Part shown: positions 18,909-49,509 of the stretch, in pieces
Numbering within the stretch: the stretch's first letter is position 1
Layout of the letters: each line of letters begins with the position of its first letter
Origin: Alviniconcha marisindica
Taxonomy: Eukaryota > Mollusca > Gastropoda > Provannidae
DNA: 64,000 nucleotides
Reading direction: 5' to 3'
Assembly (NCBI GenBank): GCA_018857735.1
Contig: JABMCL010000882.1
Location: forward strand, 100,001 to 164,000
The notes under the pieces: model-generated
What the model was told of the DNA's origin: nothing
Database searches by the model: none
What the model saw: the letters and a program-made list of their open reading frames with translations, nothing else
Position numbers and translations under genes: made by a program

Positions 18909-18992
18909 TCACTTGGAAAGAGCCTCTGACAGAGCCTTTTGCTGTTCCGGTGAACACTGTGCCAGACAGACTTGGAACATCTCCTGGTTTGT
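18909..18992 (-). CDS. IPO5: IPO5 exon 28 (terminal)
   Basis: Residues 1069-1095 and the TGA at 18909-18911. Enters in phase 0 after tctgtttcag. Encodes TNQEMFQVCLAQCSPEQQKA and then LSEALSK, equivalent to the C-terminal helix of vertebrate IPO5 (AQLSPEQQAAIQELL). Confidence 0.95.
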   Translation of the reverse strand, partial: TNQEMFQVCLAQCSPEQQKALSEALSK

Positions 18993-21900
18993 CTGAAACA
19001 GAGACATCACCGCCATGTGAACACATGGAACCCTGGAGCGTCTGAAACAGAGACATCACATCATGTGAACACTTGGAACGTCTCCTGGTTTGTCTGAAAC
19101 AGAGATACCACTGTCATGTGAACATGTGGAACATCTCCTGGTTTGTCTAAAACAGAGATATCACTGTCATGTGTACACGTGGAACCCAGGAGTGTCTCAA
19201 ATAAAGATATCACGCCATGTAAACACTTGGAAAATCTGGTTTGTCTGGAACAGAGATATCACTGTCATGTGAACATATGGAACCCAGGAGTGTCTGAAAC
19301 AGACACATCACATCATGTGAACACTAGAAACATCTCCTGGTTTGTCTGAAACAGATATCACACATGTGAACATGTGGAACATTTCAATCTGGTTTGACTG
19401 AAACAGTGACATGTCACGTGAACACTTGGAACATCTTGATCCGGTTTCTCTAAAACAGGGACATGTCATGTGAACACATCTCAATCTGGTTTGTCTAAAA
19501 CAGGGACATGAACACTTGAAACATCTGCTTTGTCTGAAACAGGGACAACATGTCATATGAACACTTGGAACAATCCCAATTTGCTAATGAGTCCATGAGT
19601 TCAGACAGCCTCAAATCCCAATTTGCTAATGAGTCCATGAGTTCAGACAGCCCCAAATCCCGATTTGCTAATGAGTCCGTGAGTTCAGATAGTCCCAAAT
19701 CCCAATTTGCTAATGAGTCCGTAAGTTCAGATAGCCCCAAATCCCAATTTGCTAAGGAGTCCATGAGTTCAGCTCTCATTCCACATGCATGAGTCCTCAA
19801 ATGGCATCATTCGCTTGTCATGCATACGGGCCGAGGTCGGTCGCTACTGCTACCCTACTACTAATCTAAACTGACAGAAATACTCCGATCCCAGATACAC
19901 TTGATCATAGAGTTAGTCAAAACAAACAACAACAACAACTGTGAAAGCATTCACAATCTGAAACAGATCGAGAGCCAGAGTGCTCGTGCAGAATCAACAC
20001 ACAAGGGAGTTAATCCGTGCCCAAAAGACATCACACAAACAAACACAGCAACAACAAAGACCTGGGTCGCCTACTGTAACTCTCACCGGGCATGCGAGTA
20101 AATACAAGGTAAAAATAAATTAAAAAACGTACCTCTGTTGGAGTTTTATTTACCTTGCATTTACTCGCATGCCAGGTGAGAGTTGCGCTGGCAACCTAGG
20201 TCTTTGTTATTGTTGTGTTTGTGTGACATCTTTTGAGCCCTAATTAACTCCCTGATTAATTGTTGATTCTGATAGCATTCGCTATGCTTTTCACCTGGAC
20301 TTGTCGAACAATATTCAGGAGCCGCATGTAGACGTCAGACTTTGCATCAAGCGTTTCCTGCATCACTGCCTCCGCGATGATGGCAAATATGTGCGGCAGG
20401 TTGGCTCCACTGTCTCCCATGATGCCTGGGTGGTTTCTGTGCACAAGCGGGGAAGAGAGAAACTGTGGCGCACAACTTTTTTTAAGTCCATCAGGCTTCA
20501 GGCTATCAGCATGCATGTTGTAAATCAGGGTTCCTACAAAGCTTGTTCTCCAAAACACAAATTGTAAAGACCTTTTTTTCTTTCTTCTTCAAAACTCAAA
20601 AGACAACCCGTCTTTAATTCACCAGGTGTGACACGTTTATGCCCAAAGTATTTCCATTTCATGGATTATAATTTACATTAGCCAAAAACTGAAAACCTGA
20701 CGCTGTCTAACTTAGTAATTCTTAAAGTCTGGGGAACTATCAGCTTTTCAGTTCGACCGCTGTCGAAATTCACAAACTTTCAAAGGTTGAATATTGAAAT
20801 ATTCATTTTTAACCCCCACTTAACTTTTGAAAGTTATATCAGATGGGACCTCAGAGAGGTAAACCCCAAATCGTTCACACATGCATGCACATGCACACAC
20901 ACACACACACACAAACACACATGAATACACGTGCTCACTCACACACACAACAAAGTCAAGCCAAGTAGTTCATATTCCACAAATTTTCCCTTCGTAGAAT
21001 AAAGAAGTACCTGACCCGACTCCAAGACCTACAGAGTCGAACTTACGCCTCTAAGAGATCACAGATGTAGTTATAAATATGCACAGCCTCGTCCACATCC
21101 TCTGTGACCGGGAGCCAGTGCATCAGGCGAGGGATGATGTCGTCCACATTCACCTTGGAGCCGTTGTACTTGCAGATTTTCACCACAGCTGAGATGGCGT
21201 TCTCTGTCGCGTTGATATTCTCTGGCTGTTTTGACTCTGGGTGTTCAATCACGCTGACCAGGCGAGGGATACATTCTGTGGGTGGGACGAAACAACAGGC
21301 ATGTAATATGATGGCATTTGGGCAGGACAAAACAACATGCATGTAATGTGATGGCATTTGGGTGGGACAAACACAGGCATGGAACATTCTGTGGGTGGGA
21401 CGAAACAACAGGCATGTAATGTGATGGCATTTGGGTGGGACAAAACAACATGCATGTAATGTGATGGCATTTGGGTGGGACAAAACAACATGCATGTAAT
21501 GTGATGGCATCTGGGTGGGACAAAACAACATGCATGTAATATGGTGGCATTTGGGTGGGACAAAACAACATGCATGTAATATGGTGGCACTCTCTATGGT
21601 GTTAATATTCTCCAGCTGTCTGGACTCTGAGAGCTGGACTCCACATGTTCATCACGCTGACCAGGCGAGGGAAGTATTCTGTGGGAGGGACAAAACAACA
21701 TGCAAGTGATACAGTGGCACTCTCTGTGGCATTAATATTCTCTGGCTGTCTGGACTCTGGGAGTTCTAGCACGCTCACCAGGAGTGGGTTACTTTATGTG
21801 GGCAGACCATAACATGCAGGTAATATGACAGCATTCTCTGTGGCCTTAATATTTACTCTCTGGCTGTCTGGACTCTGGGAGTTCTAGCACGCTCACCAGG

Positions 21901-47800: not shown

Positions 47801-49509
47801 GAGACGAAAAGTGAGAAACGGAACACGCAAAAACGGCTGTCCAACCTCACTCATGATCTCCCAAGCAACCTTGACCTAGCTCATTGAGATAATAAGGATG
47901 GCACATCAATTCTGTTCTCAATCTTGCTTTTGGTTTCAGGACCCATCACAACCTTAAAAAATATATATAAAAAAATCATTAAGGGTTATGGGCAAGAACC
48001 AAGAAGTGTCAAAAGGAAGGGGAAAAAAAGGGCTACATGTTGTAACACACACACACATACATGCGCAAGCAGACACAGAATGGTGGCTTTCTTTGCACAT
48101 CTGCATGCATGCACTCACGTAAAGATGTGCAAGGCACTCTCCATCAGTCCAGGATCCCCCGAGTTGGCCAAGTCAAACATGAACTTCAGGATGTCCTGCC
48201 AGTTGTTGGTACCGTTATCATCTGAAACACAAGTACTCGGTCAGCATCTGAAACACAAGTATACAGTCAGCATCTGAAACACAAGTACACAGTCAGCATC
48301 TAAAACACAAGTATACATTCAGCATCTGAAACACAAGTATACAGTCAGCATCTGAAACACAAGTATACAGTCAGCATCTGAAACACAAGTATACAGTCAG
48401 CATCTAAAACGCAAGTATACAGTCAGCATCTAAAACACAAGTACACAGTCAGCTTCTGAAACACAAGCATACAGTCAGCTTCTGAAACACAAGCATACAG
48501 TCAGCATCTAAAACGCAAGTATACAGTCAGCATCTAAAACACAAGTACACAGTCAGCTTCTGAAACAAAAGTATACGGTCAGCTTCTGAAACACAAGTAT
48601 ACAGTCAGCATCTGAAACACAAGTATACAGTCAGCATCTGAAACACAAGTATACAGTCAGCTTCTGAAACACAAGTATACAGTCAGCATCTAAAACACAA
48701 GTATACAGTCAGCATCTGAAACACAAGCATACAGTCAGCTTCTGAAACACAAGTAACTTGGTGCTTTATGCCCAGTCAGCCATTACGGTTATATCAGCTC
48801 GATTATGAAACACAAGTACACATTACAGTCAGCTTCTGAAAAACAAGCATACAGTCAGCATCTGATTCTGAAACACAGGTATACAGCCAGCTTATCCAGT
48901 CATGAAAAAAAAACTTTTCAAATCTCCTAGAATTTTTTCTCTCTCTCTCGAAAGACTATTGTTTAAAAATAAATCTAAAAAGAGGCCTGAGGCCAAACAC
49001 TGTCTTTGCTATGATACTCTCATTCCTATCCTAAAAGCAAAAACCAAAGCCTCATCAGGGCTTGGTCAGAGTTTGCGAGTGCAGCCGTTTTCTTGCGTAG
49101 ACACATGAACACCACTGCTTGTATTACACCACAATATTCTATTTCCAGACCAGATTTTAGTGTAAATAGCGCACCATCTTCACCAAAGAAACACAAAGTG
49201 GTTTGGGCTGTTGGAAGGTTCATAAGCAGATGGACCCAGGTTCAATGCTGCTTTGGGTCCACATCTTGGTTTAGGGACGATCATCATGTGGCTTTGTCCT
49301 CAACAGTGAACAAAAAATTACAGCTGGTTCAAAATGTTCCTTCTGGTGGTGATAGCACAGTCAGGCGTAACAGTGACTGTGCTACATATTTTTCAAACTG
49401 GTGTGACTCCTATAAGGTGACGCAAGTGGTTCATGGAAATTGGTCAGATATGTGGCCGTCCACACTGCTCCTAGAGCTGTACTAGCAAACACCCTGCTCC
49501 CTTCCATCT

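What the first reader, a model, noticed from the sequence alone, without database searches (positions are those of the whole stretch)
18992..48895. Tandem arrays seeded by splice junctions recur across one gene
At least ten IPO5 exon edges (acceptors of exons 4, 9, 13, 21, 26, 28; donors of 14, 17, 20, 25) have next to them a minisatellite whose unit is a copy of that same junction: splice site plus 3 to about 60 exon bases. Each array copies its own exon, not a shared sequence, so these are independent births. Introns 2, 6, 7, 10, 11, 23 and 26 carry no array and act as internal controls. Random minisatellite formation should not so often start exactly across a splice site. A biased process is implied: slippage or repair at R-loop or transcription-linked breaks, cDNA- or splicing-linked templating, or selection for redundant splice sites. 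I know of no described class of this kind, but cannot search for one.
Basis: partly seen in the sequence, partly recalled or inferred. Interest (0 to 1): 0.92.

Follow-up and report, generated by a model that had tools for sequence, protein, structure and literature searches.

The report
Snail gene with repeated splice junctions
In a snail's importin-5 gene, 11 of the 54 splice edges are copied, splice site included, in tandem repeats in the adjoining intron, a pattern already described in lancelets as "mirages", and it most likely arises from ordinary tandem duplication that is tolerated wherever one intact exon edge is left.

Summary
I built a clean 28-exon importin-5 gene (minus strand, 1095 aa, 27 of 27 introns GT-AG). 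A second gene, on the plus strand, has a twelfth case: 15 copies of the acceptor of a ShK-domain exon. Its stop codon has a similar array with no splice site. The species is a caenogastropod snail (best importin-5 hit: Littorina saxatilis, 89%).

The main inference is weaker than stated. The class is published: "mirages" of amphioxus. Random births predict 3.6 to 5 edge-crossing arrays; 11 is a two- to threefold excess (P = 0.0003 and 0.0026 on the full list; 0.009 and 0.08 on the strictest), gone if introns were half as long at birth. The edge falls anywhere in the unit (KS P = 0.34); abutting arrays are mildly raised too; splice dinucleotides are not clearly better kept than others (P = 0.12). 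I read these as ordinary minisatellites tolerated at the border of constrained sequence: mirages in a mollusc. The genome-wide test could not be run.

The parts
18909..55928 (-). importin-5 (IPO5) gene, 28 coding exons, start codon to stop codon
48219..48755 (-). array of 26-bp units copying the acceptor of exon 4 (edge at 48221)
42538..45049 (-). array of about 71-bp units copying the acceptor of exon 9 with 37 exon bases (edge at 42574); about 31 extra copies
38837..39340 (-). 139-bp units copying the acceptor of exon 13 with 44 exon bases (edge at 38880); 3 extra copies
27177..28137 (-). 80-bp units copying the acceptor of exon 21 with 30 exon bases (edge at 27206)
21196..22004 (-). 118-bp units copying the acceptor of exon 26 with up to 80 exon bases, mixed with 40-bp intron-only subunits (edge at 21275)
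18970..19550 (-). about 49-bp units copying the acceptor of exon 28 with up to 23 exon bases (edge at 18992)
37241..37851 (-). 35-bp units copying the donor of exon 14 with 26 exon bases (edge at 37826)
32620..33725 (-). about 107-bp units copying the donor of exon 17 with 46 exon bases (edge at 33680)
28209..28581 (-). 45-bp units copying the donor of exon 20 with 33 exon bases (edge at 28549)
23247..23525 (-). about 56-bp units copying the donor of exon 25 (edge at 23893), about 365 bp from the edge
46706..47210 (-). array abutting the donor of exon 5 (edge at 47210); hardly any exon sequence copied, so counted as abutting, not spanning
35584..35825 (.). interspersed repeat (other copies near 9.1-9.4 kb, 13.8-14.1 kb and 60.1-60.4 kb) lying between donor 16 and its copies
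588..2474 (+). array of about 111-bp units copying the acceptor of a ShK-domain exon (edge at 2451) with up to 24 exon bases; 15 extra copies, AG kept in 15 of 15
2451..2603 (+). ShK-domain coding exon of a second gene
4765..5006 (+). 61-bp array copying the last 23 coding bases, the stop codon (4788-4790) and the start of the 3' UTR of the second gene; no splice site in the unit

Best explanation
The repeats are minisatellites of the published 'mirage' kind: 11 of the 54 splice edges of a snail importin-5 gene are copied in tandem, and they most likely began as ordinary random tandem duplications that happened to span an exon edge and were tolerated because one intact edge stayed joined to the exon body. 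Inferred steps: (1) small tandem duplications arise all along this gene by slippage or unequal exchange; (2) those wholly inside an exon are removed by selection, while those in an intron or across an exon edge survive, since the spliceosome can still use an intact edge; (3) the survivors grow into arrays; (4) introns later lengthen, through arrays and inserted repeats, so that edge-born arrays look over-represented and some become separated from their edge. Shown directly: the gene structure, the copies and their register, an interspersed repeat between donor 16 and its copies, and an array on a stop-codon edge. Not shown: the mutational process, which junction copies are used in splicing, and intron lengths at the time of birth.
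For: Tandem arrays are everywhere in this window: 41% of IPO5 intron sequence and 23% of the rest; births per kb of collapsed sequence are 1.26 against 0.79, P=0.13. The edge falls at scattered points in the unit (12 families, KS P=0.34 against uniform). Arrays abutting an edge without crossing are mildly raised too (5 against 2.96 expected, P=0.17), so proximity, not only the junction itself, seems raised. An array of the same make sits on the stop codon of the second gene, where coding constraint ends without a splice site. Splice dinucleotides are kept in 117 of 136 copies against 103.5 +/- 11.9 for random dinucleotides of the same units (P=0.12; P=0.16 without CpG contexts), which gives no clear sign of selection for spare sites. 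Only 3 of 12 unit lengths are multiples of three, one of them an estimate, so use of a spare site would usually shift the frame. An interspersed repeat lies between donor 16 and its copies, as expected if introns grew after the array was born. The published class has the same anatomy.
Against: On the full list the number of crossing arrays exceeds random births (11 against 3.63 gene-wide, P=0.0003; against 5.05 within own introns, P=0.0026; a first version of the gene-wide null gave P=0.0001), and crossing plus abutting is 16 of 26 against 8.0 (P=0.0003). The explanation needs introns about half their present repeat-collapsed length at birth, and the nine array-free introns have a median of 588 bp today. 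Splice dinucleotides are kept somewhat more often than average (117 against 103.5; 103 of 116 against 89.4 in an earlier, untested count). The stop-codon array is a single case. No transcript, second species or second allele was available.
Confidence: 0.62

Rival explanations
1. Births are truly biased to exon edges: something tied to transcription or to the base-composition step at exon edges raises the rate of tandem duplication there, in snails as in amphioxus.
For: Two- to threefold excess of crossing arrays on the full list; crossing plus abutting arrays 16 against 8.0 (P=0.0003); the same pattern known from amphioxus in several genes; a second gene in the window shows it too.
Against: Within own introns the excess falls to P=0.03-0.08 with stricter lists and vanishes with shorter ancestral introns. 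No fixed register; a stop-codon edge shows the same thing without a splice site. One gene picked after the fact.
Confidence: 0.22
2. Selection keeps redundant splice sites: the copies insure correct splicing or regulate it.
For: 79 of 136 copies score within one bit of the real site or better with a matrix made from this gene (A9 24 of 30, A21 10 of 11, ShK 10 of 15, D16 0 of 3; sums); splice dinucleotides kept in 117 of 136.
Against: Dinucleotide retention is not significantly above that of random dinucleotides (P=0.12); D16, A13 and A26 keep the site in 1 of 3 copies each; most units would shift the frame if used.
Confidence: 0.05
3. Some arrays are inflated or misplaced by the assembly.
For: Long arrays are hard to assemble; one amphioxus globin mirage was reported as aberrantly assembled in the draft genome (supplement legend in PMC3087553).
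Against: Copies within families differ by many substitutions and small indels, as real arrays do; the gene around them is intact; 12 independent families.
Confidence: 0.05
4. The arrays are steps in intron gain or exon extension: spare junctions are sometimes used, so that exon ends shift or new introns form, as proposed for amphioxus globins.
For: Published model (PMC3087553); the exon-20 array has a unit of 45 bp and lies inside a stop-free stretch of 236 codons, 28141-28848, that includes exon 20.
Against: The IPO5 exon edges themselves give a conserved, uninterrupted protein; no transcript data.
Confidence: 0.06

Closest known systems
'Mirages': minisatellites spanning exon-intron boundaries in amphioxus (Adh3, globins BflGb6 and BflGb9, troponin C; PGBD5 likened to them)
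   Same: Gene-specific tandem units that include a splice site and part of the exon; donors and acceptors both affected; unit lengths vary (10-160 bp reported for Adh3 and globins); many, not all, copies keep AG/GT (passages of PMC3087553 and PMC3902484).
   Different: Another phylum (caenogastropod mollusc). More per gene here (11 edges of IPO5) than in the passages seen. One array in the window spans a stop codon instead of a splice site. Somatic and allelic instability, reported for amphioxus, could not be tested.
Internal tandem repeats at exon-intron boundaries of human genes in segmental duplications
   Same: Minisatellite-sized units (mean 30 bp) that overlap exon-intron boundaries; 27 intron modifications reported (passages of PMC2812944).
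   Different: There they change the transcript between paralogues; here the coding frame is unchanged at the annotated edges and transcript effects are unknown.
[quoted passage not shown] Drosophila cases)
   Same: Local tandem duplication that carries splice signals (passages of PMC2891723).
   Different: Those duplications are inside an exon and create an intron; here existing junctions are multiplied and no new intron is seen.

Membership tests
Mirages (amphioxus exon-intron boundary minisatellites) | Tandem repeats whose unit spans an exon-intron boundary | tested here: met
   11 of 54 IPO5 edges and one acceptor of a second gene
Mirages (amphioxus exon-intron boundary minisatellites) | Both 5' and 3' boundaries can be duplicated | tested here: met
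   6 acceptors and 5 donors in IPO5
Mirages (amphioxus exon-intron boundary minisatellites) | Unit belongs to its own gene, varies in length between cases, many but not all copies keep AG/GT | tested here: met
   Units 26-139 bp; dinucleotide kept in 117 of 136 copies
Mirages (amphioxus exon-intron boundary minisatellites) | Regular splicing is not disturbed | not testable with these tools
   No transcripts; only indirect: the annotated junctions give an intact 1095-aa protein 89% identical to that of Littorina
Mirages (amphioxus exon-intron boundary minisatellites) | Length instability between alleles or cells | not testable with these tools
   One sequence only; the whole-genome search was unreachable in all eleven attempts
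   P 0.0003-0.08 depending on list and null; no excess if introns were half as long
   KS P=0.34 against uniform over 12 families

The most novel reading that the evidence does not exclude
Caenogastropod snails and lancelets independently carry a mutational process that multiplies the borders of coding sequence (splice junctions and stop codons) into minisatellites, so that a fifth of the exon edges of a housekeeping gene end in stacks of spare copies, a standing supply for new introns and shifted exon ends.
Probability: 0.2. Interest if true: 0.8.

Novelty: new member of a known kind. Interest (0 to 1): 0.42.

Why it matters
In the papers I could search, mirages are reported only from amphioxus. 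A snail gene with eleven of them gives a dense second system in another phylum. It makes testable whether exon edges are hot spots for tandem duplication or only look so because introns were once short, and whether such arrays feed intron gain. It also warns that gene annotation in such genomes meets many decoy splice sites that score like the real one.

Tried and rejected
Rejected: the window as amphioxus (importin-5 is 57% identical to Branchiostoma, 89% to Littorina saxatilis, best 120 of 838 hits listed). Rejected: a shared mobile element carrying splice sites (introner type, recalled), because each family copies its own exon and I saw no common unit. Rejected: selection for spare splice sites as the main cause. 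Not supported: a higher array density in IPO5 introns than in the rest of the window (P=0.13).

Weak points of my counts: the 26-array list was merged by hand from 113 TRF rows plus the D16 family, which I found only through the edge search; microsatellites and three small arrays were left out. Dropping D16, D25 and A4 and adding the three small arrays gave P=0.009 and 0.08 for the two nulls. The D16 unit length is an estimate. In one search the printed line 'introns without arrays ' is a script error; one search gives the right list. In one search A4 was entered as 3 exon bases (what the TRF unit holds), whereas measured 12. In one search the looser settings took in more rows than for some families (D25: 10 rows, 5 with GT, against 6 rows, 5 with GT), so some rows are probably false copies. 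One search looked for a misremembered exon string, found nothing and was replaced.

Literature: nine searches. In them I saw mirages described only in amphioxus papers. Of the four with a mollusc term, one search returned no paper, one each (PMC5153469, PMC3449122; listing only, not opened), and one search listed 14, of which I opened passages of six (PMC4039745, PMC2812944, PMC3087553, PMC12783039, PMC3902484, PMC3862624). PMC3862624, on Conus gene structure, speaks of microsatellites in introns and not of junction-spanning arrays in the passages shown. The library holds only openly licensed papers. The founding paper (Canestro and others 2002, PMC117041) is not held: I saw its title in a reference list, the rest comes from citing papers or is recalled. 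Read as passages only: the six above, PMC7931591 and PMC2891723. The other papers were seen only as search listings.
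Full report
What is there. The window holds a complete importin-5 gene on the minus strand. Guided by a human protein recalled from memory and with the family named by a match to solved importin-5 sequences, I set exon edges by hand and joined them: 28 exons, 3288 coding bases, one open frame of 1095 residues, and 27 of 27 introns GT-AG. Among the 120 best of 838 protein hits, the closest are importin-5 of Littorina saxatilis (89% identity, full length) and Babylonia areolata (85%); other molluscs are at about 61-70% and Branchiostoma at 57%. 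So the window comes from a caenogastropod snail; the species itself was not identified.

Check of the observation. I compared each of the 54 splice edges (up to 60 exon and 60 intron bases) with the window. Thirteen of 54 had same-strand copies within 4 kb that span the edge by at least 3 bases on both sides. I dropped the donor of exon 5 (only 4 exon bases copied, so the array merely abuts) and the acceptor of exon 16 (one weak hit). In nine of the eleven, the array reaches into the exon and the real junction is roughly in step with the copies (positions). At donors 16 and 25 the copies stand off by about 820 and 365 bp. Between donor 16 and its copies lies an interspersed repeat with further copies near 9.1-9.4, 13.8-14.1 and 60.1-60.4 kb. 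The stretch between donor 25 and its copies has no second copy in the window.

A second gene. On the plus strand an exon coding a ShK domain (Pfam E=8e-6) begins at 2451. The array before it copies its acceptor with up to 24 exon bases in 15 further copies, 15 of 15 keeping AG. The terminal exon, which joins it in phase (other exons may lie between; sequence read), ends with a stop codon at 4788-4790. A 61-bp array there copies the last 23 coding bases, the stop codon and the first UTR bases. This array spans the edge of coding sequence but no splice site. A third gene with a cwf21 domain has exon pieces between about 61.4 and 63.5 kb; no array lies beyond 60945.

Is it more than chance? Arrays fill 41% of IPO5 intron sequence and 23% of the rest of the window, so the question is how many array births should span an edge. 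I collapsed each of 26 arrays to one unit, placed each unit at random, and required at least 3 bases on each side. Gene-wide, 3.63 crossings are expected against 11 seen (P=0.0003); within each array's own intron 5.05 are expected (P=0.0026) (first versions, P=0.0001, and 43). Without D16, which only the edge search could find, P is 0.0008 and 0.0085. Without D16, D25 and A4 and with three small extra arrays, 8 are seen and P is 0.009 and 0.08. If introns were half their collapsed length at birth, 8.5 crossings are expected (P=0.16). The excess is therefore two- to threefold on the full list, depends on choices, and comes from one gene picked after the fact.

Is it tied to the splice site? Four results say no or not clearly. 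The position of the edge within the unit is spread from 0.12 to 0.74 of its length, not different from uniform (KS P=0.34, 12 families). Arrays that stop within 31 bp of an edge without crossing are mildly raised as well (5 against 2.96, P=0.17), and crossing plus abutting is 16 of 26 against 8.0 (P=0.0003). The splice dinucleotide is kept in 117 of 136 copies, against 103.5 +/- 11.9 for randomly chosen dinucleotides of the same units (P=0.12; an earlier count gave 103 of 116 against 89.4, untested). And one array sits on a stop codon. Against this, 79 of 136 copies still score within one bit of the real site or better on a matrix built from this gene (A9 24 of 30, A21 10 of 11, D16 0 of 3; sums), so many remain possible decoys.

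What it most likely is. I commit to a neutral account: small tandem duplications arise along the whole gene; those inside exons are removed; those in introns or across an exon edge survive, because an intact edge stays joined to the exon; arrays then grow and introns lengthen. The anatomy, the repeat between donor 16 and its copies, and the stop-codon array are shown; the mutational step, splice use and ancient intron lengths are inferred. The strongest rival is a real duplication hot spot at coding borders.

Comparison with what is known. [quoted passage not shown] PMC3902484 adds PGBD5 and cites troponin C. Human repeats at exon-intron boundaries were listed in PMC2812944. The three features of mirages that I could test are met; undisturbed splicing and instability could not be tested. 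Nine literature searches showed me no molluscan case, within a library of openly licensed papers only and with most listed papers unopened. I therefore file it as a new member of a known kind, notable for its phylum and its density.

Limits.

Noticed in passing
588-2474, plus strand: Array of about 111-bp units whose units also match part of an interspersed repeat (other copies near 6.6-6.9 kb and 16.1-16.5 kb), so the array seems to have formed after that repeat had inserted beside the exon.
   Followed up: partly
4765-5006, plus strand: 61-bp array across a stop codon: coding end, stop and 3' UTR repeated; suggests that borders of coding constraint in general, not only splice sites, may carry such arrays.
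   Followed up: partly
28141-28848, minus strand: The 45-bp array after exon 20 lies inside a stop-free stretch of 236 codons that includes the exon, so use of spare donors there could add 15-residue units to the protein; no transcript data to test it.
   Followed up: no
16741-17725: 33-bp array (about 30 copies) that stays open over hundreds of bases in frames on both strands; no gene assigned.
   Followed up: no
3374-4243: 39-bp array whose unit holds a long inverted repeat by eye, between the ShK exon and the terminal exon of the second gene.
   Followed up: no
61450-63470, minus strand: Exon pieces of a gene with a cwf21 domain (Pfam E=1.4e-12), the SRRM2/Cwc21 type by recall; nearest array at 60644-60945.
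   Followed up: partly
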